A stretch of DNA of 64,000 bases, taken from Cytospora piceicola. Its lineage: Eukaryota; Ascomycota; Sordariomycetes; Diaporthales; Cytosporaceae. The position numbers and the translations under genes were made by a program. The stretch is taken from contig JALQBC010000011.1 of assembly GCA_023375675.1 (NCBI GenBank), positions 1 to 64,000 on the forward strand, in the 5' to 3' direction. Shown piece after piece: positions 10,372 through 60,800 of the stretch; position 1 is the first letter of the stretch, and each line of letters begins with the position of its first letter. Under the pieces are notes generated by a model. That model saw nothing but the letters and a program-made list of their open reading frames with translations, did not search any database and had not been told where the DNA came from.

Positions 10372-12056
10372 ATGACCGTTTCGACCTCCGTTCCCACATC
10401 CGGACCCCTAACCGTTCTGGTATCGACCAGGGCGGTTCTCACCCTACCCGACGACAGCCTCATTCTCTCGCCCGCGACGATAGCGGTGTCCCCCCTAACC
10501 GGAAAGATCATCTCCATTGTCCCGGCCGTCCTGCCACCCACCTCCTTCCCCCAGTCTGCAGTATACATCAACCATGGCTCCAAGCTGCTGCTACCCGGCC
10601 TCGTCGACGCCCACGTCCATCTGAACGAGCCCGGGAGGACAGAATGGGAGGGCTTCGCGACTGGGACCCGTGCCGCGGCGTCGGGAGGCGTGACGACTGT
10701 GATCGACATGCCACTGAACGCGATCCCGCCCACAACGACAGTCTCAGGGTTCGAGGTGAAGTTGGCTGCCAGTAAAGGCCAGTGCTGGGTTGATGTTGGT
10801 TTCTATGGTGGGGTGATACCCGGCAATGCGGACCAGTTGGTGCCATTGGTAGAAAAGGGCGTGCGAGGCTTCAAGGGCTTCTTAATCGAGAGTGGTGTAC
10901 GTATATCGCCCCGGAGATCTAGATCTTCAAGCCCCGGGAACAGTTGGACTTCTGTACGTGTTTGCTGACATTGTGTGTCACCCAGGTCGACGAATTCCCC
11001 GCGATATCCTCCACCGACATCGACCTCGCCATGCGCTCCCTCGCTGGCCACCCAACAACCCTCATGTTCCACGCCGAGATGATCCCGCCCATTAGCGACA
11101 GCGTAGGCGACTCGGTGCAGGCCTCGGAGCCCCCACTCGCCCCCACGGGCGAGCTCACCTCATACAACACCTTCCTCGACTCGCGGCCGCCGGTCTTCGA
11201 GACGTGCGCGGTCGAGGAGATCCTGTCTCTGGCGCACCTCGCGCCACAACTACACCTGCACATTGTCCACCTGTCGGCGACGGAGTGCATACCGATCCTG
11301 AAGCAGGCGAGGAAGAGCGGGGTGAACATCACGGCCGAGACGTGCTTCCACTACCTCGGGCTGGCAGCCGAGGAGGTTGAGGACGGCGACACGCGCCACA
11401 AGTGCTGCCCGCCGATCCGATCCCAGGTCAATCAGGATGGCCTCTGGGAGGAGCTCTGCGCCGACCCGAAGGACAGCGTCATCAAGACCATCGTGTCGGA
11501 CCACAGCCCGTGCACGCCGGAGCTGAAGATGCTACCAGGCCGGCTGCAGCAGAAACGGGTCGAGGAGGTTCTTCAACAGGGTCTGATACACTCAGACTCC
11601 GGTGTCGACGTGACTATGCCTGGCGAGGAGAAGGAGAAGACGCTGCCGGGTGACTTCTTCGCTGCATGGGGTGGGATATCCTCGGTGGGACTGGGCCTGC
11701 CCATATTGCACACCACAATCAAATCACACAAGAGGCCCCTCGAGATTGTCGACATCGTGCGCCTGTGCTCGCAGTCCACAGCCGCACAGGTTGGCCTGTC
11801 GCACCGGAAGGGCGGCTTGAAGGTCGGGCTTGACGCGGATGTCTGCGTGTTTGATGACACCGAGGAGTGGACGCTCGACTGCGGCGGGATGCACTGGAAG
11901 AACCGATGTTCACCGTGGGAGGGCAAGAAGTTTGTGGGACGGGTGAGGGAGACTTGGCTCCGAGGCCAGAAAGTGTTTGAGCATGGTGGTGCGAACGGTG
12001 GGTTCGTGAGTGGCGGGCCTGTTGGTGAGGCTATCACGGAGAAGAGGACGGTTTAG
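10372..12056 (+). CDS. DAL1: Allantoinase
   Basis: Hydrolyses allantoin to allantoate (EC 3.5.2.5) in purine catabolism, releasing nitrogen from urate. Two exons, 10372-10896 and 10986-12056, are joined across an 89-nt intron (GTACGT donor, TGCTGAC branch, CCCAG acceptor) in phase 0, giving 531 residues. Features of the cyclic amidohydrolase fold are all present: metal-binding His81 and His83 in GLVDAHVHLNEPGR, the carbamylated Lys168 in GFKGFLIESG, His in LHIVHLSATE and ETCFHYL, and Asp347 in VSDHSPC. The splice falls inside the conserved ESGVDEFP motif, which confirms it. A pyrimidine-rich leader (about 10180-10330) precedes the ATG at 10372, and the GATA cluster upstream fits nitrogen control. 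No purine-pathway partner gene is adjacent in the window. Confidence 0.95.
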
Positions 12057-43837: not shown

Positions 43838-44477
43838 TGGCATCGTTGATGCGCATCCAAAGCCGGAGAGATGTGAACACGATCGAGACGAAAATGGAAA
43901 CGAGTGAGAGACGGAAAGAGGGCGAGGGAAGACAGAAGGAGGGAATATCTGCATGCATGGCTGTTTTAAATTGGATTATGTATTAACTTTGGAAAACGCA
44001 TTTGAGCGGCGCTTTTTTGGCACGAGTAACTTCAAGAGACACAGTAAAAATGGAGGATGATACGAGAATGGTACGGATCAGGATATAGACCGGGATGGGA
44101 AAAGATTTTGGTTGGGGTGTGTGTGCTAGAGGCGCAGTCATCATTATCGACCATCGTCGACAACACTTAGTGGCCAATTTATTCTTTACCAGCCGGGTCC
44201 GACCACGAATCTCAAAAATGCCATCTATTTACTCTGGGTTGCTAGTCGAGAAACAAACAGCCAAGAATAATAAACAGGGCGGTTTAACACAACTCAGGGG
44301 GCCCGTCACCCTTGCCATAATCGCACGAGGGACTGTGTATCTGCACTGGAGCGTCGTAAGCTGTTACAAGTTTGAGACAAGCTTGGGAAACCTCAACACT
44401 TGACAGTCTGCAAACGCGCACAAGCAACTCAGACATCCAATGCGCTCCTTCATGTGCCGTACGGGATCCAGCGCTGT
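43838..44477. other. Intergenic, 0.64 kb
   Basis: 3' flank of the exporter and promoter of the mannosyltransferase. No gene or repeat of note. Confidence 0.5.
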
Positions 44478-46423
44478 ATGTCGCTGAAATCGCTAATCTC
44501 AGGGAGAGGGCCGGCCTTCTTCGCGTCCAAAGCAGGCGCACGATGGCTCATCACCCTCATCGTGGCCATCTCCCTTTGCTCCGTGATATACGTCTACCAC
44601 AGTGACGCCAACACTGCATTATTAAAACTTTTACTGCCCAACGCCAAACCAGACCAGCCAGGAAAACCCATTCCGGAGTTTTCGTCAAGCACACCAGGCG
44701 TATTACCTCCAACACCGCCACACGGCACACACCACCACACCCGCCCAGCATGGATCGACACGCCCGCCGTATACGACACCTCGCAGCTCACAAGAGGGGA
44801 CTACACGCCCACCAGCGCCCTGCCTGACCGGCCTCTGGCGCTGCACCCGCTCCTCTCGTCAGCCGTGGCCCGCTTCCTCGCCCGCCCGGTCCTGACGCAC
44901 TCCCAGGCCAGGCCGCAGAACGAGGCCGCGTGCCCGCGCAGCCAGCTCGACAGGCAGGTCAACGCGGACCAGCTGCGGGACGAGCAGGCCGGCTGGCTCG
45001 CCGTGGACGCGACGCGGGTCGTGGAGATGCGGGCGGGGGCGCTGGAGTACCTGGAGGGGCGGTCGGGAGCGGAGGGCGAGGATGCTCTGGTGGGGCCCGG
45101 GAAGACGTCGGTGACCGGCGGTCCGGACGTCGGACAGCAGGATGTGGCTGTGGAGAAAGGCTCGCGGGGGGTTGTGCTGGCGGCTGGGAACCACAGGACT
45201 GTGCAGAAGGCTGTGATGTGCATCAAGGAGCTGCAGAGGCTGGGTTGGACGGGTGGGGGGATCGAGGTGTTTCACTTTGAGGGTGAGATGACGGATGGGA
45301 ATCAGAGGAGGGAGTTGGAGGAGTTGGGGGTGACTATTCGTATGGTACGTGGACGACTATCTGCTGGGTTTTATTTACCACGGTCATGCATACGCAGCAT
45401 CCCTTCACAGAACACACTACTCACATACAGCAACACGACAGGTCTCAACTAAGAAAGCTCCCAACCAGTGGAAGAACTTCGAGCTCAAAGCCGAGTCGAT
45501 CTTGCGCAGCTCTTTTGATGAGGTTCTGTACCTCGACTCAGACAATGTCCCCCTCTCTAACATATCATCCCTGTTCGAGTCGCCGCTCTTCCGGGATCCC
45601 GCCGGTGGCAACGCCGTCTTCTGGCCGGACCTTAATCGCGACCACCCAGATAATGCTATCCATCGACTACTGGGGATACCGTGTCACGACGCCTGGGAGC
45701 TGGACAGCGGGCAGATCCTCATCGCGAAGTCTGGGAATGAGGGATTGAACCTTGCAGCGCTGTATCTGGCGCAGTACATGGCGGAGGAGGGGAGTTTCTG
45801 GTTCAGTGGTGGTGATAAGGATACATTGTAAGTGAATCCTTCTCTACCAACCCGAGCACAGAACACACGCAGACACCACACCACCTCCCTTCCTGGACAC
45901 CTTGAATACATGCTAACCCGGACACAGCCGCTACGCCTTCCTAGCCCTAGGCATCCCCTACACCCCGGCCCCGCGCTGGCTCTCCCTCCTCGGCAGCAAC
46001 CTAACCCCCCAGAGCAGCGTCTTCTGCGGGACGGCGATGCTCCAATACGGACTGACCCCGCCGCCGACCCCGGACCACGCCGACCCGGCCGACCCGTCCC
46101 ACCCGGCGCCCCTGTTCGTGCACGCCAACCTGCTCAAGCACCAGAGCGGCGCGGGCCGGCGCGACGTCTTCGCCCTGCTGCGGCGGCTCTCCCCGCTGCA
46201 GGACGACGTGCGCGCCGACTACGCGCCCGCGACGGCGCTGCACGGCGTCACGGGGGGCGGGAAGTCGGTCGGCGGCCGGGGGCTGTGTAGTGATATCGTG
46301 GCGTTTCGTGACGGGGCGGATGTCGAGACTGTGGATGCTGCGGGCGCGTTTGGGGGCGTTCTGGGCGGGTTCGAGGAGGTCTATTTTGGGTACCCTGGTG
46401 TGCGGCCTGGAGTTTGGAGGTGA
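44478..46423 (+). CDS. Golgi mannosyltransferase, MNN1/MNN2 family
   Basis: Exons 44478-45344, 45442-45827 and 45928-46423 are joined across introns of 97 and 100 nt, giving 582 residues. The start is the first in-frame ATG; the frame is open 26 codons further upstream but without ATG. It is a type II membrane protein with a short N-terminal tail, a signal anchor WLITLIVAISLCSVIYVY, a Pro/Thr-rich stem, then the catalytic domain. RGVVLAAGNHRTVQKAVMCIKELQRLG is the nucleotide-sugar fold entry and LYLDSDNVPL holds the D-x-D metal site (Asp321-Asp323). Also present are GNAVFWPDLNRD, WELDSGQILIAKSG and GIPYTPAPRW. The family adds alpha-linked mannose to N-glycan outer chains using GDP-mannose. 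The codon composition of exon 3 is strikingly GC-rich compared with exon 1. Confidence 0.9.
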
Positions 46424-47146: not shown

Positions 47147-48748
47147 CTAACAAGCCTCATTCTCGGGTACTGTGTCATCCGTAACATTCCCACTGCTATA
47201 CTCCCTCCCACTACTGTACTCCCTCCCAATCCCATCATCCCTAACATCCCCCAACCACGTCGCCATGGCCCTGACAGCCTCGCCATACTCCACGCCCAGA
47301 CTCTCCGGCGCGCTGAACGGCGGCGGCTTGTCCCAGGCATGCTTCGCCTCGCTGACAATCCTCACGCCCACCTCCTTGTCCCTCTTCCTCAGCCTGTCCG
47401 CGAAGCGCTTGCCCTCGGCGAGGAGCATGTCGTACTCGCACAGGCACAGCTGGACGGGGGGCAGCTTGTCGATGAGGTGGTCGGGCATGAGGCCAGGGGA
47501 GAGGAGCGGGTTCTCGAGATCGGACTTGAGGGTCGGGGGGTATATGTAACTCGCGTCGAAGATGTCGGTCAGGGACCGGGGGAGCGTGAGCTCGGGCTTG
47601 ACGCAGGTGAGGCGCTTCCTCGGGCGGGACATGGTCCAGTCGAGGAGCGGGTAGAAGAGCATCAGGCCTACGGGCTGCGGGATAGAGGCGCTCGCGGCCT
47701 TGGGTATGTTGCCGCCTTGTTCGCCTGTTGACAGGGATAGCTTCTCCATAGACTGGATGAGGGCTGGTTCCAGGTCGTATCCGCGGTTCTTGTGGTCCTG
47801 TAGCAACACCCAGCTCGCCAGGGCTAATGTTCCGCCTGCCGAGAAGCCGCTGATGATGATCCTGTCAGGGTCTATCCAGAACTCGTCGGCCCGCCGCCAT
47901 ATCTGTAAAATCGCATCGGCGCAGTCCTCGACGGGGGTGGGGAAGGGGTAGCTAGGCGCCAGGCGGTACTCGACAGAGAAGACGACGGCGCCGAGGGCCT
48001 GCATGACTGCCATGACCCAGCGTCCATCATCGGTCCCCTGGCCAAGGCAGAACCCTCCGCCGTGAAAGTTGATGACAGCTGGTCTTCGGGATCGAGGATC
48101 TGGTTGTGGGTTCAGTGTGGTCGGGATCTTGTCCATTGGGTTGTCGATCGGGTCGGAGGGTGTGGTCGGCAAGGATATGGAACTCCTGGACTTGGATGAT
48201 CGGAAAGACATGCGGGAGGAGATTCGTGACAAGGATGGCTTGCGAGACTTGCCCGCGTCTCCATCGAGCATGGAACCTCTGGAAGAGAAGCGTGACAGGG
48301 ACGGCTTTAATCCCTCGTTATTGCTCGGTACCTTGAGCATCCCCTCGTTGCTGTCTCCGTTGCTATTCTCGTCGTGGCCGTGCTTCTTCAGCTTGTTCTT
48401 CACCGACCTTATGCTCTCTCTGGAGCTCTTCCTCGATATTGTCCTCGGCCGATCGGGCGACCAGACTTCTGTTTTTATCTTCTCCTTGCCGCTATATTCC
48501 TTGGAGAGTGTGGAATCGAAGTAGACGGTCTTGTGTGGTGATGGTACGGAGGGCGAGGTCATGTTGCCCATACCAAAGGCGATGGAAGCACCGGCGCGGT
48601 ATGCATATGCACGTGTCGCAAGGGTCCATCGTGAGGACTGCTCAAGGGGGTTGTTGTAGACATCGAGGGAGGGTTCCTTGATGGCATCTATTGCTTCCTG
48701 ATGCAGGTCTGGCTGCTCAGCCAAGGGGGCGATGGCAGCGTCGGACAT
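47147..48748 (-). CDS. HSL-family alpha/beta-hydrolase (candidate ergosteryl-aspartate hydrolase)
   Basis: Single exon, 533 residues. The oxyanion-hole motif is HGGGF (229-233). The nucleophile elbow is GFSAG with Ser303, followed by Asp440 (CEYDMLLAEG) and His470 (AKHAWDKP). This is a complete Ser-Asp-His triad of the hormone-sensitive-lipase class. Residues 80-220 form a Ser/Arg/Lys-rich, probably disordered insertion with repeated SRISSRMS-type units. The C-terminus carries the short duplication GREYSSGREYSSG. There is no signal peptide, so it is likely cytosolic or membrane-associated. It is transcribed divergently from the ErdS gene. As I recall, fungi that make ergosteryl-aspartate also encode an alpha/beta-hydrolase, ErdH, that removes the aspartate. 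Position and fold make this gene a candidate, but identity is inferred; a general carboxylesterase or lipase is the alternative. Confidence 0.85.
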   Translation of the reverse strand: MSDAAIAPLAEQPDLHQEAIDAIKEPSLDVYNNPLEQSSRWTLATRAYAYRAGASIAFGMGNMTSPSVPSPHKTVYFDSTLSKEYSGKEKIKTEVWSPDRPRTISRKSSRESIRSVKNKLKKHGHDENSNGDSNEGMLKVPSNNEGLKPSLSRFSSRGSMLDGDAGKSRKPSLSRISSRMSFRSSKSRSSISLPTTPSDPIDNPMDKIPTTLNPQPDPRSRRPAVINFHGGGFCLGQGTDDGRWVMAVMQALGAVVFSVEYRLAPSYPFPTPVEDCADAILQIWRRADEFWIDPDRIIISGFSAGGTLALASWVLLQDHKNRGYDLEPALIQSMEKLSLSTGEQGGNIPKAASASIPQPVGLMLFYPLLDWTMSRPRKRLTCVKPELTLPRSLTDIFDASYIYPPTLKSDLENPLLSPGLMPDHLIDKLPPVQLCLCEYDMLLAEGKRFADRLRKRDKEVGVRIVSEAKHAWDKPPPFSAPESLGVEYGEAVRAMATWLGDVRDDGIGREYSSGREYSSGNVTDDTVPENEAC

Positions 48749-51549
48749 GTCGTAGTCGTCGTGGTCGTCGTGGTCGTCGCGGTCTTCGTTGTCGGTAGAA
48801 CTGTGGTGACTATGGTGACTGTGGATCTTGGTAATGACAGACTTGTCTTGAATGGAGGGATCTGAATAGCGAAACGTTTAAGACGGTTAGGAATGAAAAC
48901 GAGAAAACAAACAGACACATGCAATGTTTAAAAATGGAACAGATTGATAGGATCAGCGGGGTTCAAGGTGTGAGGAAGAACCGGGGATACGTCACGTTAC
49001 TGTGTTGTTGGGGAGATGAGGAGGGAATATCAGCATCTGGCGTGTCTGGCGTGACGGTGGTCGGTGTCGGTCCATGTTGGTGGTGATTCAGGGACATGAG
49101 TGACATGGGAGGACAGCCTGCATGCAAGCCGGATTTGGTGTGGTTTGGTTGGCTGTTCTGGCTCTCGCTTGTGCGTGATGGTGACACTGATGTTCTGTGT
49201 GGATCATCTCCTTCCTAAACCTCGTATGATCGACCCAAATGACTATATTATACAGTATAAAAATACGGAGATGTATGAGGTATGATATTGGATACTCCGT
49301 ATATATGATCCAGATAAAATGCAGGTGGGCAGGTCATTCAAACAGACGCTGTGCAAGAGCAAAGAGCAAGATCAAGATCAAGATCAAAGATTATCAGGCG
49401 GCACTGCCACACTCTGCGACACCTGGCAGCTGGGCACTTCTCAAAGGTTATACCACATGCAAGCCCAATTAGGCTTCCTTGCCTTCCAATCCTTCCAGGC
49501 TTTCCCGGCTTTCAGGGGACTTCAGGGCGGTAGTCAGTCAAGTTACCTAAGTGGTTTTCCAAGGTTATCGGTCGTGGGCAAAACGGTATGACGTCAAGAG
49601 TCCAGACCGTCGGGAGTGGGACGCCAGGGACATTTGATGCAATCGATGAATGGGGTAGCGTGTGCGTATGCGTATGTAATCCACACCCATGCAATATTAC
49701 GTCGTTTGGGGAATTCGAAGTGGGGGAGCATTTGGTCCGCGCACCGGGAGATCGACGATGACATAAGCGGGGTAGTCGGACTTGCTAGAAATTGCCTAGG
49801 TACTGTGGTTTACCTTAGACTACATTTGCTAAGCCAAACTCTCTTTCTTATCAACTTCTTTTATCGCTCTCGCCTCCGCCTCCCGAGGTCCCCAAATCTG
49901 CCAGCCAGCCAGCCATCCCCCAAACAAAGCATCCTCAAAGAAGCAGCTATTGCTCGCATTTAGGCGCGTTGGACTGCATTTCGGGTCATCTGGCAACTGA
50001 TGCCGTCATAGATGTTGGCTATGCTATCGATGTACTTGCAAAACCATGGTGGTGACCGGCAAGGCCGGGAGGACTGACGATGGCCTCTTCCTTGTCTTGA
50101 ACTGATAAACTTCGACATGCATAATATGGTTTCAACACCACGTGTGTCACATGCGCATCTTGAATCGTGAGACCGAGTAACAAACTTCGAAATGAGTAAT
50201 ATTGGCCGAGGTGCTGTGTTACCGGGCTTTCCGTTGCCTCCCCTTGGTTTATCCTTCTCAGGCTTCTGTTCCTTTCCGTTGATTTCCGTTACATTCCCGG
50301 ACACTCCGGGGCCGGTCCTTTCTCTTCCAAGGTCGATACCGCTGCACATCGCTGACTAAGTATGTATACCTTTGGTATCATTTACACTGTCTTTTGACGA
50401 ATATTTGTTGTTGTTGTCTGGGAACAAACGACTGTTCAGTGGTTCGCCCATTAAACTACCTAGTTCAACAGAGAGACTCATTTAAACACAGACCAAACTG
50501 CCAGACTGTTCCAGGGGCATTTGCTCCGGGCCTTGTAACATCATCATCTCCCCAATTCCTACCTATTTAGGTACCCAATTTCTCGTCTATCTCGATGCGT
50601 CCCGCCATTTACTAATCTTCCGCGGGAATCGATAGCCTGGGCAGTCCCCCCGGCCCAGCCCCAGCCCAAGTCAGTTTGGCGGCTGGCCGGGCAGCCAGGC
50701 GGGCAAAAAAAAAAAGAGAGGAAAAAAGAAACATTGAAGTACACAGTACCTGGCACTTACACCACAACAACGTCATTGGGCCCACTTTACCGTCAAGGAC
50801 TTGTTGACATGCATTCCTGGTTCTGTCATTTCGTACTCGGTTGTCCGCTGGGACGTTGAATTTCCCACACGATCAGGAGGCGAACTACCTAGCCCTAATC
50901 TTGTAAACTACCTAGGTAACTAACTACCTGACTACCAGGACTACCTAGGTACCTACTGTTGCTTTCTCGACGACGAATCGCTCATACACTAACGCGGGAA
51001 TCGCGTGGAACTGCCGGTGCCGGAAAATCAAGCTTAGTCTTAGCACGGAACTAGAAGACTGTTACAGTCAGTAGGAGGTACGTACGTACCAGGGTACTTG
51101 CAACAACAGTATGTCATCCTTTCAACGCCTTCTTTTTATTATAACCCACACTACACGTCTTCCTTGGCCGTGTCTTACTCTTCTGCCTCTTTTCCCATCT
51201 TCTCATCCAACAGAGTATTCCTTTTGACATACTGTGATACCCCCCAATTCTCTCATCTTCACTTGATACCCATAATCCCATTGTCTTGCCTTCACTGGCC
51301 ATACCGTGACACTCATCAAAGCGTTTTGTTCCATATCCAGTGTGTCATCGAGACGTCATCTCTTGCTTCCGTAATAAACAAGGAAAATCACCGTCAACAG
51401 CACCGTCACCAGCACCGTCGCTGTTACCGGCAACACAGTCAAAGTCAGGGCCACAGCAACAGAAACTACAAGCGAGCAAGCTCGCCGACAACACTGCCGT
51501 CACCAACAATAATAGCGAAAAAAGCCAACGCGGTTGGCTGTCTCCCAAG
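48749..51549. other. Long divergent intergenic region, 2.8 kb, between hydrolase and ErdS genes
   Basis: No convincing gene. It holds a GTCGTCGTG microsatellite (about 48748-48790), (GATCAA)n-like units (about 49365-49390), a 10-bp poly-A (about 50706-50715) and several CCTAGGTA repeats (50890-50960). The frame of ErdS stays open for 70 codons before its first ATG, but without an upstream ATG, so this part is more likely 5' leader. Confidence 0.5.
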
Positions 51550-54253
51550 ATGACGGCACTCCACGATTTCCTGAAGACCATCTCCCCTCGCTCAAGCGTC
51601 GACGGTGCCCCCAACAAGGCCAATGGCCATGGACAAGCCAGTTCCACTGACAGCAGGTCGAGTCTGGGCCACTCCAGTAGACGCACCGAGGACAGGCGCG
51701 CGAGGAAGCAGGAGAAAGCATTGAGGCTTCAGCAGGAGAAGGAGAGAATCGAAGAGAGACGCAAGATGGAGGACCAGCTCGCAATGCAGGAAGAGGACGA
51801 GGAGACACGCGCCCGCTACGGCTTGGCCGTGGATGCCAAAGAGCTCATGACCATCGAGGAGGTTACTCATATCGCCGAGGGGCAGGAGGTCACCTTCCGC
51901 GCTCGTATACACCACCAGCGCAACATCTCCAAGCACCTCGACTTCATCCTTTTCCGCGACCAGACTCATTCCATCCAGGGCGTCCTCCAACATGACACTA
52001 CCCACTTCGTGAAATGGGTGCAGCGTCTCGACCCAGAGTCCCTTGTTCAGGTCACTGGTACCTTGCAGAAGCCCCCTGAGCCAGTGCGCTCCGCGACCGA
52101 CCACAACATGGAACTCAAGATCTACTCGATCCATCTGGTCAATGCTGCCCACGACCTGCCCTTTGACAACTACGAGCCTCCTGAGACCACACAAATGCGT
52201 CTGTCGAACCGCATTCTCGACTTGCGCCACCCCAGCAACCAGGCCCTTTTCCGCATCAGGCATATGGTGACGAGGAAGTTCCGCGAGGTGCTCGAGAAGG
52301 ACGGCTTCATGGAAATACAGACACCAAAGCTACAGCCCTCTGCCACCGAAAGTGGCGCCGAGGTCTTCAAGGTTAACTACTTTGGACGTCAGGCATTCTT
52401 GGCGCAGAGTCCGCAGTTAGCAAAGCAGATGACAATATCTGCAGATTTCGGCAAGGTGTACGAGGTAAGTTGCGGTCATTTGCGTAATTTCAGTTAGTTT
52501 CTCAACATGGCCATTGGTAATTAACGATTATCCTATACAGATCGGGCCCGTCTTCCGAGCCGAAAACTCCAACACCAAGCGCCATCTCGCCGAGTACACT
52601 GGTCTCGACATCGAAATGGCCCTCCAACACGACTACCACGAAATTATCCAGAAGATCGACGCATTCTTGAAAGAGGTCTTCCGTACTCTCCAAACCATGC
52701 CCGAGCTACAAATTGTCCGTGAGCGTTGGCCATCCAAGGACCTCGTCTGGCTCGATCAGACCCTCATTCTCCCCTTCAGTGAGGGTCTGCAAATGCTCCG
52801 TGACGATGGAATTGATGTGGCAGATGAGGATCTTTCTACGCGCAACGAGATTCACCTGGGTGAGCTCATCAAGGCGAAGTATAACACCGACTACTACATT
52901 CTCGACAAATTCCCTGCCAACGCCCGACCCTTCTATACCCACAAGGATCCCAACGACCCCAAGTGGACCAACTCCTTCGACATCTTCATTCGCGGCCAGG
53001 AAATTTGCTCCGGCGGCCAGCGTATCCACGATGCCGCCAAGCTCCGCGAGAACATGCGCGAGGCAGGCATCGGAGAGGACGGCATGGAAACTTACCTCAC
53101 GGCCTTCGATTTTGGTGCACCACCCCACGGCGGTGCTGGCTTGGGTTTGGAGCGTATCCTGGCATGGTCTCTCGAGCTCGGCGACGTGCGCTACGCCACA
53201 CTCTATCACCGCGACCCCAAGTCCCTCCCCGAACGGTCGGCTCGTCTGCCACACCCCGAGTGCGACACACGGCACCCCCTGCCGGAAGGCATCAACGAGT
53301 ATCCGCTCGAAAAGCTGATTGCCAACTACGGCGACGCCTCCAACACGTCTTGGCTGGACGAGCGGTTCGAAATCTGGCACCACAGCACCACCGGCGCTGC
53401 GGTAGGGTACGTTCGTCAGGACAAAAAATTCGCTATGGTGGCCGGCGATCCGCTCTGCGACCCATCTCAAAGCGACCAGATTGTCAAGGACTTTGTGAAG
53501 TTCGTTGAGAAGGACTTGAAGCTCACACCCGTCTGGTTGCTTGTCTCCGAATCAGTGCAAGAAGTCCTCGGTCGGAACCTGGGATGGCGCACGCTCACCT
53601 GTGTTGAAGAGCAGCGCGTCGACGCCGACAAGCACGCCGCTGGTCCCCACGGCCGCGAGGCGAGGAAGGTCGAGAGAGAGGGCATCAAGATCCATGAGTT
53701 GAAGCCCGATGACGACTTCATGAAGAGAGCGGACGCCTCTATTGAGAGGTGGAAGCAGCACAGGACAGGCAAGAAGCAAGTCCACCTGACCGAGATCCGA
53801 CCGTGGGTCGACATGGAGCATCGCCGGTACTTTGCCGCCGAGAAAGAGGTCGAAGAGGACGGCAAGAAGACGAATAAGGTCATGTCAATGGTCGTTTTTG
53901 CCCAGCTCGCGCCCCGCCACGGCTGGCAGGTGAAGTGGGCCCTCGACTTCCCGGGCACCCCCTCGGGCATCATCGAGGCGACGGTCATGACCGCTCTCGC
54001 CGCCGTCAGCGGCCCCGTGACGTTCGGCGCCGGCGTGAGCGACAAGCTGGTCCCCGGCGCGCACCTGGGCGGCGTGAGGGCCAAGTTCCTCGCCAAGACG
54101 TACGACACGGTCGTCAAGAGCCTGAGGCTGAACAAGAAGAGCGAGTTCCGCGAGAAGTTCGGCGCCTACGGCGAGCCGGTCTACGTGTGCTACCCCCGGT
54201 TGGGCCTGGGCGTCAGGGACTTCAAGTCCATCATCCAGTTCTTCGAGGACTAA
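51550..54253 (+). CDS. erdS: Ergosteryl-aspartate synthase (AspRS-DUF2156 fusion)
   Basis: Exons 51550-52464 and 52541-54253 are joined in phase 0 across a 76-nt intron (GTAAGT...CTATACAG), giving 875 residues. Residues 45-76 are a charged coiled coil. From about 90 comes the OB-fold anticodon domain and then a class IIb AspRS core: motif 1 RHMVTRKFREVLEKDGFMEI, motif 2 FRAENSNTKRHLAEYTG and motif 3 GLGLERI (505-511, Arg510). From about 552 a DUF2156 domain follows (GAAVGYVRQDKKFAMVAGDP, then HGWQVKWALDFPGTPSGIIEA). Known ErdS proteins charge tRNA-Asp and transfer aspartate from it to the 3-OH of ergosterol, making ergosteryl-aspartate at membranes. The fusion of these two domains is diagnostic. 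The dedicated cytosolic AspRS is expected elsewhere in the genome. All catalytic motifs I can check are intact. Confidence 0.95.
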
Positions 54254-54837: not shown

Positions 54838-57800
54838 CTACTGTTCCTTCGATATTTCATAGCCTCCCGAACATATTCGCACCAGCTCCTCGGGGATGAG
54901 CCTGGCCTGACGATTCGTTCTCGCCTTGCTGTTCTCTGGGACAACCTTGCCTCTCCAATCTTTCCTGATAGCCATAAGGCGACCCCAATATTGCTTCGCG
55001 GACTCATCCGCCTGTCGCTGCGACGATCCACTGACAACCAACTCTGCCGTCACAGGTCCACTCCACGGCTGTGTTTCGACCTCATCTGGTGATGACCCAG
55101 GAACTGCTGAATCCGAGATCTTCTTTTGGTCCGTGAAACGCCCGACCAAGAGCCAATCCACAATCGCCTTGTTGCGCCTGGCAATGTCGACGGCCGAGCG
55201 TGTTCCGTTGGGTCCGTGATACGTTATGCTGGCACCGCGGCGAACCAGTAGTTTGACTGTTTCGAGACGTCCAGCTGAGCACGCTGCCATGAGGGCTGAC
55301 CCCGAGGGACACCCTTCGAATTTCAGACGAGCTCCAAGGTCGAGGAGGTTCATGACGGCGATTATATTTCCCATTGATGCATAGATGCACAATGGGGCCC
55401 ATGTATTGGATGGCTCCAGATGGGCCAACCTGCGCATTCTTTCCAGCCCGAGCTTTCGCAGAAACAAAACGTAGTGGCTGGTAAGCCAGGCCATAGGCAC
55501 CATACCATAAGAACCGTTCCATGAAAATGGCTCACACTGGTCTATTCGCAGGTCGGTATTCAAAAGGAGGGAAGCAAAGGAGCCTCTTCGCATACCTAAG
55601 TGGAGCGGTGACCAGGAGGAGTCTGTGTTTGGTTGATGAGGATCAAGGCCATATTGGACCAAAGTCGCGAACATTTCTTCTTGGGCGGCTTTGGCTGGCT
55701 CATCCATACCATCAGCAGCAGCATGCAGAGGCGTGTCATGTGCAAAATTGGAGGTTTTGAGATCTGCTCCGGCATTGATCAATAATCTAGCCAGTTCAAT
55801 ATTGCCGTGTAGTGAGGCAATTGTAAGTGGAGTATCTCCATACTCATCTCGACATTCCGTTGCAGCGCCCTTCCGAAGAAGAAGCTCTGCCACGAGGATA
55901 TGCCTTGATGCCCTTGACCAGGCCACCTCATGCAAAGCTGTGTTACTGTTGATGTTTATTGCGTCAATGTTAGCGCCATTTTCGAGGAGTAACGTGGCTG
56001 CCTGGACATTTCCTTCGATAGCGGCCAGATGCAAGGCTGTGTCACCTGTAGCCGTTCTCTGGTTCGCTGCGAAGTAGGTTGGCTGACGAAAAGTGCCTGT
56101 GTCATCACTTAAATAGTCAGGACATTTCTTAAGCCGCAGGTATTCATGCTACTCACATGTGAGGGGCTTCAAACTTTCGAACGTGATCGAGGAGTAATTG
56201 CAACCCTGTGTTGTTGTTTCCGTTGACAGCCGCGCAAATCATGCTCTCCTTCTCACGCAGGACCGAGCCTCCGTCACGCTGATACTTGTCCAGCATCAAA
56301 GAAAGAATCTCGTTCAACTCAGGGCACTCGACCATGTGGTGCAATGGTGAGACGTATATATGTCCTGTGCCGACACATCTAGTGGTATCAACATTATGGG
56401 CGAGGAGCCATTCAATAGCCACTTTTTGGTGATTTTCGATGGCCCAAACCAAAGGCGTTCGGCCGTTTAATCCTGGCAACTCGCTATCCAGACAAAAGCC
56501 CTGACGAAGGAGCTCTTCGCAAGTCTCCGTGTCTGCACGCAAGAAGGCGTTCTCGAATGCCCCAGCGACCTCTTTGGTGTCCTTTTGCGACACACGCGTG
56601 AAGATCTTAGAGCAGTTTCTAAGGAAATCGATGATTGTCTGATTTCCCACTCCTCTAGCGTATGCCATGGGATTCATGCCAGAATTGTCGGTATCCATGT
56701 TACTACCGTGCTCGACAAGGTATTCGACGGCGTTGAATTGTGCATTTTGCACCGCAAGATGCAATGGCAACCTACCATCGGCTGCCTTGGCGTTGATGTC
56801 GGCCCCTCTGCCGCAGAGAAACGTGAGCAAGTCAATGCTCCCAAAGATGGCTGCCATGTGCATGGGGGTAAAGAGCCCAGTAGACGGTGCGTTCACGTCT
56901 GTAAAAAGGCCATTATCGATGTAGAACGACAGACATTCGGTCTTGCCTACCAGAGCAGCAATGTGCAGTGCATTCACTCCGCGGAATATTTGCATCTGGC
57001 CACGGATCATTGCATGACAGTCGCCAGTCTTTTGCCAAGCGATCTTCCAAGCCGTCGATGCCATCATTTCGGAGAGAAATGCCGTTTGACCAGACGCAGT
57101 AGCCCACAAGGCAGCGTTGAATCCACTTGAACAAGTTTGGTTTGGATTGGCCCCGTTCTCCAGCAATAATTGAGCAGTATCAACACTCTGTTGCTGAAGA
57201 TGGTATGCAAGAGCTGGCATTGAAAGATCATCGATTGTACGAAGGTTCGGGTCCATGCCCCGCTTCAAGAGCTCACTAATCTGCCATTCTTTGGACTGGC
57301 CCACCAAGTAATGGACCAATCCTTTCTGTTGGCCGACATTCGGGTTGCTCTCATTTAGCCGTGAGGTATCAGCATGTTCCAGGAGTTGTGCAAAGATGGT
57401 CTGGCTATCGTCTTCCGTGGCCGGGCTGGAACAAGCCAGCTCTAGTGCCGACGAGTGGTCGGTCCGCTGATGCACACTGACACCTTCGGTGAGAAGCAAA
57501 GTGACAAGCTTGACATTCTGAGCAGTAATTGCTGCCTTTAAAAGCCTCACCACCATGTCCGATTCTCGTAAGGAATTCCAAAATGTTTTGCTGGTATTAG
57601 TGAGGAACTTTTGCAACGTAGCCACTGAGATGGGCCACAAGTCGTCAAGTACCCGGAGAGTGCTTCCAAGGGGCTCCAACAGAGGTAAGACCGCCGAAAT
57701 CCTTGTGACCTCCTCGTAGGACTGCATAAAACTGAAGAGATCGGGCTGAGAAGCTGCAAGGTCCAAGGCGATTTCTCGATCTCGTTTGACTCTTACAGAC

Positions 57801-60800
57801 TCATCAATGAAAAGCCAAAGGGACGCTGGAGGTACAGGTAATTCCCTTCGAGCGTCCTGGATGGTCGACATGAAGTTCTCCCATACTAGTTTCTTGTCTT
57901 CCACAGCAAGTTCCTGAGATGCTTCTGTAACCAAGATCCCCAATACTTCGATGTCTAACCTGGACTCTGGAGAGCACAGGCAACTATTGAGATAGATATC
58001 TAGAGGAATTCTGCCATCAGTGCGAAGTGTGCAAGCTTTGGGGTGTAGAAACATCAGCCGAGCCAGGAAGTTTGCAGATGTTCTAGAGGTGATGTGATGT
58101 AGAAGGGTTGCATCATTTGTGCCAATAGCCTGAGACTGGATATCTGCTCCCACCAGGATGTCGAACGTCCGCTGAGAATTCATTTCCACACAAAGGTGTA
58201 AAATAGGGATTGGACCCCGCAAAATGTTGGGGCAGCATTTAGCCCTCTGCAAAAGAAGCAGAGCGCTTTCTTCTCCATCTTCAGCAAGTGCAAATGAGAT
58301 TGGTGTGTAGCCCTCCTTATCTTGCGTCTCCAAGGCTGCTGTGACATTCGCTTCCGTCTCGAGATCCAGGTTTGCCTTGATGAAGACAGGTGCTGAGCGT
58401 CCAAGATGCAGGACATTTTGTCCTTGTTCAGTAACCACAGTGCAGCCTGTTCCTCTGAGGATGAACTCCCTGATAATTTCGCATAATCTGTTGTACTTCT
58501 CGTCGTTGTCGTCAACTTCCCAGGGGTCCCTCTGTCTAGCCAGCATGTGGACCGGCAACAGGCCATCTGGACCTGGTTGTGAAACATTGCATCCTGCATC
58601 GAGCAGTATCTTGAAGGCAATTAAACAGTTATCGTAACCTAATTTAGCTGCTTCCTGGAAGGGGGAAAGGCCATTGACAGGGTTGATGGCAGCTGTCAGG
58701 TTTGATCTTGGATCTCCCACTACACTGGCAAGTTTCTGGAAGTCGGCGTTTCTGATAGAAGTGAACAACGTCGTTATGAGAGCATCCTCCGCGAGAGAAA
58801 TCCTTGTGTCAACGATGGAAGTGTCCGAGGTGAAGTCACAGCCTTTTTCGATTGCGAGCGACCATGCCGCTTTGCAGAGGCTGAAGTGTGTGGTCGACCT
58901 TCCTGTTATCGGGGCCAGACATCTGACAAATAAGTCCAGCCCATTTTTGGCGCGAATCTTATAGTCCCGTCCGGAAGTACCTAGGGTAGCTTTATCAAAT
59001 ACACACTGAGCCTCTTCATCCGGATCGATGCCGACCTCGAGAAGAGTGCTTATCGCGGTAAAGTCACAGGTCATATCCGCTGCTCTCATCGCTATTGCGA
59101 TTAGTGACTGGCCTGAAAACGGGCTGGAGCATGGAATATTGTGATCTGCGCCCGCGTCGAGTAGAATCTTGATCGTATTCGTCATGTGACACTTCTCGTC
59201 AGTGCCAATACAATAGGGATTAAAGCCAAGAGATAAAAGCAGGTCATCTGGGTTTTCAATACCAAGAAGAAGACCCTGAGCAGCACATTGAAGTGGCGTG
59301 CCAAAGCCGCTCTTCTGATTGATATCCGTACCATTTTCAAGCAAGGCGGAACAAATGACGGGAAGGGATAATGTTGCCGCCAAATGCAAAGGCGTAAAGC
59401 TCCTGTGCGCCAATTGAGGCGCTAATCTCATAATCCGGGCCCTCGTGCCCTCCCTGTCTAGGTTTCGATTTTCGAGCAAAATATCATCCAACAGCTGAAG
59501 AGCCCATGATATCAAGTTGCCGGTTTTCATGGGGTTGAAAAAGCGGATTGCCGAACCGATCAGGCTCTGATCCGTCCACTCGTCCCTGGCATATATCGGC
59601 CAGAACCTCGCGGCGTACTTGTAGAAAGGATGCTCCTCGTTTCGCCTTATTATGTAATTAGGTTCATCTGCATGATTCGTGGGCCAATGATCAAAGTCTT
59701 TGAACTGGAGATAGTTGAGGCACTGGATTGCCAACAGTCGATTGCAGATAGACTTGGATATCCGGAACGGCTTAAGCTCAGGCATAGAGTTCATTTGGCC
59801 CTCGAGGAACTCTTGCACAGTAAAATGCGCGAATTCGTAGTGGCCACCATCATTAGATCTTCGAACGAGGCTTTTGCATAGCTTCGGGATGGAATCTTCG
59901 CGGATGATGCTGTGTGGATCCAAAACTTGACCTGCAGTGACGGTATCCGGCACCGAGAGCGCTTCTCTAAGTTCAGGTATCTCGAGCTTCGGCTCGGCGT
60001 AAGCGATGAAATTCAGCATTTTCTGTACCAGAAGCTCTTTTCCACGAGGAACTTGTTGCAAGATACGAGCATAAGACTCGTCGAGGCCAGGCGGTAGTCG
60101 ATCAAGAGCTCCTCGGCAATCTTGGTCTGAGAGGCAATTTTCCAAAGAGTCCAGCTGGAGTGCGACCCAGCGAAACCTGATATCCAAGTCAGCGCCAAAC
60201 CAAGAAGCAGTTAGTCAAGTGGACGAAGACTCACATTCCATTAGCACCGTCGACAAGCCGGTCAAGTATTTCGCCCTTGAGGCTCAAGTCATTCAAGCGC
60301 AGCCTTTTGTCCCCCATGCGCTTTTCGACCTCTGACGTGACGTATTCCGTAATATCTTCGGTATGAGCTGCGATCTCCATGTTTTCAAACCTGTCTTCCA
60401 GCCGACTTCTGATATGGTCCTCGTCTCTGCTGAGAAAGGCAGCTGAAATGTTGTCGGAAGCGTCGATGATTTGTAACAAGGCGTCAACAACTTTGCCAGT
60501 GGACGCTCCACATTCATCAAGCCCATCTACGATCAGATAGACATGATCGAAAGACTTCACCATATCCTTCAGCAGCTTCTGCAGGTCAATGACGCTAGGA
60601 CTTTGCTGCAAACCGCGCTCTGGGTGCAATTTCATATGATATCGTTCCAGGAGACCGTACGCTTCTTCATGCTGGATGGCAAGCTGTGCGGCGAGAGCAC
60701 AAAGAATGTTCTCTGGCGACTGTGTTATGGTGTCCTTATAGTCACAGAAGAAGAAAGTTGTTGCAACAGTTTCGGAATCTCTCTTCAAAGTCTCTTCGAT

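What the first reader, a model, noticed from the sequence alone, without database searches (positions are those of the whole stretch)
47147..54253. Divergent ErdS / alpha-beta-hydrolase pair: a candidate ergosteryl-aspartate make-and-break locus
The AspRS-DUF2156 fusion is the known architecture of ergosteryl-aspartate synthase. Its nearest neighbour, divergently transcribed, is a triad-complete HSL-type hydrolase. Fungal ergosteryl-aspartate is known, as I recall, to be removed by a dedicated alpha/beta-hydrolase (ErdH). If this neighbour is ErdH, the window holds both arms of a tRNA-dependent sterol modification cycle. The hydrolase has an unusual 140-residue Ser/Arg-rich insertion before the oxyanion-hole motif that could be a regulatory or membrane-contact region.
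Basis: partly seen in the sequence, partly recalled or inferred. Interest (0 to 1): 0.75.

Follow-up and report, generated by a model that had tools for sequence, protein, structure and literature searches.

The report
Fungal sterol-aspartate make-and-break gene pair
Two neighbouring genes in a canker-fungus relative very probably make and remove an aspartate tag on ergosterol, the main fungal membrane sterol; the system is already known from other fungi, and the only unusual part here is a long flexible loop in the removing enzyme.

Summary
A divergent pair lies 2.8 kb apart (start to start): an 875-aa AspRS-DUF2156 fusion (51550-54253, +, one intron) and a 533-aa HSL-type hydrolase (48748-47147, -) with intact Ser303/Asp440/His470. 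Three results make the hydrolase an ErdH orthologue rather than any esterase. (1) A relative that its source names "putative ergosteryl-3beta-O-L-aspartate hydrolase" finds the window gene far above the next gene of the genome (199 against 52 bits). (3) GFSAG and R..KR occur in the window and all 120 listed homologues and in none of 15 own paralogues. Exon 2 of the fusion matches solved chains 9w9e-g end to end, and the genome has a separate AspRS. The Ser/Arg-rich insertion is very probably coding, but 116 residues long, not 140; 53 of the 54 closest homologues share it and its middle is predicted disordered. Its role is unknown. Both enzyme activities are inferred from orthology, not shown. 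ErdS is in print since 2020 and, as recalled, ErdH too: a new member of a known kind.

The parts
47147..48748 (-). ErdH-type HSL-family alpha/beta hydrolase, 533 aa, read as one open frame
   Evidence: PF07859 145 bits; triad Ser303/Asp440/His470 invariant in 44 rows; AlphaFold2 model (mean pLDDT 68.8, pTM 0.71) matches HSL-family esterases by Foldseek
48104..48451 (-). 116-residue basic Ser/Arg-rich insertion (residues 100-215) before the oxyanion motif
   Evidence: 36 of its 116 residues at least 90% conserved over 54 sequences, window included; residues 125-198 pLDDT under 50
47840..47842 (-). codon of nucleophile Ser303 (GFSAGG)
   Evidence: invariant in 44 rows
47429..47431 (-). codon of acid Asp440 (CEYDMLLAEG)
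   Evidence: invariant in 44 rows
47339..47341 (-). codon of His470 (KHAWDKP)
   Evidence: invariant in 44 rows
48749..51549 (.). 2.8-kb region between the two start codons (shared upstream region)
51550..52464 (+). ErdS exon 1: N-terminal extension, OB-fold anticodon domain, start of class II AspRS core
52465..52540 (+). 76-bp intron, GTAAGT...TACAG
   Evidence: the joined product aligns over 100% of its length with several relatives
52541..54253 (+). ErdS exon 2: rest of AspRS core and C-terminal DUF2156/LPG_synthase_C transferase domain (53369-54193)
   Evidence: PF00152 144 bits, PF09924 31.9 bits; its 570 residues match 9w9e/9w9f/9w9g end to end

Best explanation
The locus encodes both arms of the known fungal ergosteryl-aspartate cycle in a Cytospora-like fungus. 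The fusion (ErdS) charges tRNA-Asp with aspartate in its AspRS half, and its DUF2156 half passes the aspartate to the 3-beta-OH of ergosterol. The divergent hydrolase (ErdH) cuts the ester with its Ser-Asp-His triad and releases ergosterol and aspartate. Shown: gene structures, domains, intact catalytic residues, no second good copy found in the genome, linkage in many relatives. Inferred from orthology: both activities and the substrate. The insertion is inferred to be a disordered basic surface loop of unknown role.
For: Fusion architecture; exon 2 matches solved chains 9w9e/9w9f over all its 570 residues at 611.8 and 611.5 bits (the depositors call them aspartate--tRNA ligase). The only PF09924 match in the genome; a separate AspRS without it on contig C41 at about 260,975-262,540. 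P0084, named 'putative ergosteryl-3beta-O-L-aspartate hydrolase' by its source, finds the window gene (199, 150 and 66 bits for three pieces) far above the next gene, 52 bits. Linkage: 17 of 21 named organisms that occur in the printed lists of both sides share the longest-contig length, e.g. Claviceps citrina 27,065 bp with tags E4U41_003766/003767, Claviceps sp. LM454 E4U14_000754/000755, Claviceps lovelessii E4U54_006204/006203, Cordyceps javanica V2A60_003001/003003, Tolypocladium paradoxum 71,632 bp; six further unnamed pairs share a contig length (10,171 to 1,118,030 bp) (recount). Motifs over the window and its 120 listed homologues: GFSAG 121 of 121, R..KR 121 of 121, H(A/G)WD 120 of 121, CE(Y/F)DML 110 of 121; of 15 own paralogues searched, none has the first three, and one (L012) has CELDML.
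Against: No activity can be tested here. The name on P0084 is an automatic annotation; the seven other jgi-sourced relatives that bear a name carry 'acetyl esterase/lipase'. In 4 of 21 named organisms the longest contigs differ (Coniella lustricola, Phaeoacremonium minimum, Ustilaginoidea virens, Fusarium falciforme); in U. virens the tags point to two assemblies. Contig lengths are per 90% cluster, so equality is a proxy for linkage. The tree of family against ten paralogues is weak (long branches; L012 falls at the base of the family; paralogues apart with 73/86 support).
Confidence: 0.9

Rival explanations
1. The hydrolase is a general HSL-type esterase (arylacetamide deacetylase or lipase-like) that happens to lie beside ErdS.
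For: Generic fold and Pfam family; many sources name relatives lipase, arylacetamide deacetylase or acetyl esterase; nearest solved structures are carboxylesterases and other HSL-family esterases.
Confidence: 0.06
2. The hydrolase removes a different aminoacyl group (for example ergosteryl-glycine) or acts on several steryl-amino acids.
For: Fungi also make ergosteryl-glycine by the separate enzyme ErgS (passage of PMC10449517); the substrate cannot be read from sequence.
Against: No second PF09924 gene was found in this genome even at E up to 10, so a maker of the glycine conjugate is not evident; the partner here has an AspRS half.
Confidence: 0.1
3. The Ser/Arg-rich insertion is an unspliced intron, not protein.
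For: Gene models of Cryphonectria parasitica (P0055, 13 residues at this site) and Coniella lustricola (P0057, 21 residues) leave most of it out; only one donor pattern was scanned, so weak splice sites are not excluded.
Against: Present in frame in 53 relatives' proteins, 36 of 116 residues at least 90% conserved, no match to the donor pattern GT(A/G)NG(T/C) inside it, third-position GC 0.73 against 0.79 for the domain.
Confidence: 0.05

Closest known systems
ErdS, ergosteryl-3beta-O-L-aspartate synthase (Yakobov et al. 2020, PNAS; paper not held; function seen in a passage of PMC9437257)
   Same: AspRS fused to a C-terminal DUF2156 domain; a separate AspRS in the genome
   Different: No structural difference looked for beyond domains and length; activity not tested
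ErdH, ergosteryl-aspartate hydrolase (name and nature recalled from the same paper; a passage of PMC8172173 states that deconjugating enzymes were found)
   Same: alpha/beta-hydrolase with triad, no second good match in the genome, linked to the fusion gene in many named fungi
   Different: 116-residue Ser/Arg-rich insertion before the oxyanion motif, and a second short one near 328-353; 54 of 121 aligned rows have both
LysX (LysRS-MprF fusion; passage of PMC9437257) and bacterial aminoacyl-phosphatidylglycerol hydrolases (titles in the reference list of PMC10580965)
   Same: Works alike: aminoacyl-tRNA-dependent lipid tagging and its removal by a hydrolase
   Different: Other amino acids and glycerolipids instead of aspartate and ergosterol
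HSL-family esterases such as Est2 (1qz3) and TmelEST2 (5mif)
   Same: Fold and triad region
   Different: 18-28% identity in the 50 chains listed; insertion and family motifs not compared with them in detail

Membership tests
ErdS | AspRS core fused to C-terminal DUF2156 domain in one protein | tested here: met
ErdS | Stands beside a separate AspRS without DUF2156 | tested here: met
   (the C41 gene was identified from its first open frame, 176.7 bits to TIGR00458, a partial match under that model's full-length cut-off)
ErdS | Makes ergosteryl-aspartate from Asp-tRNA and ergosterol | not testable with these tools
   needs an enzyme assay
ErdH | alpha/beta-hydrolase with complete Ser-Asp-His triad and HGGG | tested here: met
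ErdH | Best match in its genome to a protein named ErdH | tested here: met
   with the automatically named P0084
ErdH | Groups with the experimentally characterised ErdH | not tested
ErdH | Hydrolyses ergosteryl-aspartate | not testable with these tools
   needs an enzyme assay
ErgS (stand-alone DUF2156, glycine) | DUF2156 without an aminoacyl-tRNA synthetase domain of its own | tested here: not met
   no second PF09924 match in the genome

The most novel reading that the evidence does not exclude
In the Cytospora-Diaporthe lineage the hydrolase arm of the cycle gained a basic, Ser-rich disordered loop just before the oxyanion motif, with a possible short basic helix (107-122, low model confidence), that docks the enzyme on sterol-bearing membranes and is switched by phosphorylation, so that this lineage sets its ergosteryl-aspartate level after translation.
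Probability: 0.2. Interest if true: 0.5.

Novelty: new member of a known kind. Interest (0 to 1): 0.25.

Why it matters
If the linkage is as general as the lists suggest, the hydrolase can be recognised by position in many fungi whose genes are now named lipase, arylacetamide deacetylase or aspartate--tRNA ligase, and the Cytospora-Diaporthe lineage becomes a place where regulation of the removal step can be tested.

Tried and rejected
Sterol-regulator (SrbA-like, pattern recalled) site in the shared upstream region: one match in the window, at 10807, none in the region, 0.94 expected by chance; dropped. Kinase-site enrichment in residues 98-217: six R..(S/T) against composition shuffles, 4.7% reach it; nine (R/K)..(S/T), 7.7% reach it; hardly more than composition gives. 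A family-against-paralogue tree was too long-branched to carry weight. Of 18 paralogue loci tried (out of 37 PF07859 matches in the genome, several of them pieces of one gene), three gave no usable open frame (L007, L009, L010) and five short ones were left out of the tree (L006, L008, L016, L022, L031). The second structure job was not used, since the fusion already has solved relatives. Literature: the primary papers are not in the library. A search for papers holding both ErdH and ergosterol found none; earlier listings were capped or small. Whether the gene pairing is already in print was not established.

Full report
What is there. The window lies in a 43.6-Mb genome of 99 contigs. Its hydrolase is 89% identical to a Cytospora schulzeri protein and 73% to one of Diaporthe amygdali, so the source is Cytospora-like (order Diaporthales, recalled). 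The hydrolase (47147-48748, -) carries PF07859 at 145 bits. The fusion gene has one intron (52465-52540) and gives an 875-aa protein with OB fold, class II core and PF09924. It was started at the first in-frame ATG of exon 1; a longer start cannot be excluded, as Diaporthe relatives run to 924-966 aa.

The fusion is ErdS-like. PF09924 has one match in the whole genome, this one, also at E up to 10. A separate AspRS, the fusion's best relative among the synthetase loci fetched (36% over 411 and 44% over 78 residues), lies on contig C41; its first open frame scores best with the AspRS model TIGR00458 (176.7 bits, a partial match). The 570 residues of exon 2 match three solved chains of 862-947 residues end to end (9w9e, 9w9f, 9w9g). 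The depositors' name is aspartate--tRNA ligase, but the match covers the DUF2156 half too. Exon 1 was not searched against solved structures. What ErdS does is taken from passages of PMC9437257.

The hydrolase is ErdH-like. One relative, P0084, is named 'putative ergosteryl-3beta-O-L-aspartate hydrolase' by its source. Used against the genome it finds the window gene in three pieces of 199, 150 and 66 bits; the next gene reaches 52. Motifs near the triad and in the cap set the family apart: GFSAG and R..KR are in the window and all 120 listed homologues, H(A/G)WD in 120 of 121 rows and CE(Y/F)DML in 110 of 121; none of 15 own paralogues has the first three, and one (L012) has the near form CELDML. 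R375, K378 and R379 of the cap are invariant in 44 rows and could hold the free carboxylate of aspartate; this is a guess. That deconjugating enzymes are known is stated in a passage of PMC8172173; the name ErdH and its description are recalled.

Linkage. Comparing the printed best 120 fusion relatives with the printed best 120 of each of two hydrolase searches, 21 named organisms occur on both sides. In 17 the longest contig has the same length for both genes; in 4 it differs (recount). Three Claviceps have consecutive locus tags; Cordyceps javanica has tags two apart. Six unnamed pairs with equal contig length include 10,171 and 13,077 bp. The figure is per 90% cluster, so it is a proxy, and strand could not be read. 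The lists hold close relatives only, so nothing is said about more distant fungi.

The insertion. In the alignment of the window with its 120 listed homologues, 57 of 121 rows have 60 or more residues at this site, 2 have 20-59 and 62 fewer than 20. The 57 are the window, 53 of P0001-P0054, a Thyridium and two Pyricularia proteins; the last three lack the second short insertion. The named holders among P0001-P0054 are Cytospora, Diaporthe and Discula; the models of Cryphonectria and Coniella, of the same order as recalled, lack most of it. Identity to the window in the insertion is lower than in the domain (77 against 93% for Cytospora schulzeri, 52 against 77% for Discula), yet 36 of its 116 residues are at least 90% conserved in 54 sequences. 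The model puts it between two core strands just before the oxyanion loop, with residues 125-198 at pLDDT under 50. This fits a flexible surface loop; nothing here shows regulation or membrane contact.

Verdict. ErdS was reported in 2020 (cited in PMC9437257); what is added is a member, a linkage pattern in the named relatives and a lineage-specific loop.

Noticed in passing
G000 whole genome: No stand-alone DUF2156 gene (ErgS, glycine conjugate) was found; the fusion is the only PF09924 match even at E up to 10.
   Followed up: partly
P0123, P0128, P0133: Diaporthe sp. PMI_573 lists three fusion-type proteins on contigs of different length, one without a PF09924 call: possible ErdS duplication.
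   Followed up: no
48749-48880: An in-frame acidic and His-rich stretch precedes the hydrolase start; the Cytospora schulzeri model has a 44-aa acidic extension there, so the true start may lie upstream.
   Followed up: partly
54838-56034 and 56153-60187, strand -: Two long ankyrin-repeat frames converge on the 3' end of the fusion gene.
   Followed up: no
45349-45831, strand +: A frame with a match to a putative mannosyltransferase family (PF11051); the overlapping frame 44400-45452 has no Pfam match.
   Followed up: no
Public names hide the system: fusion-type proteins and solved chains 9w9e-g are called aspartate--tRNA ligase or aspartyl-tRNA synthetase, and the hydrolases lipase, arylesterase or arylacetamide deacetylase.
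   Followed up: no
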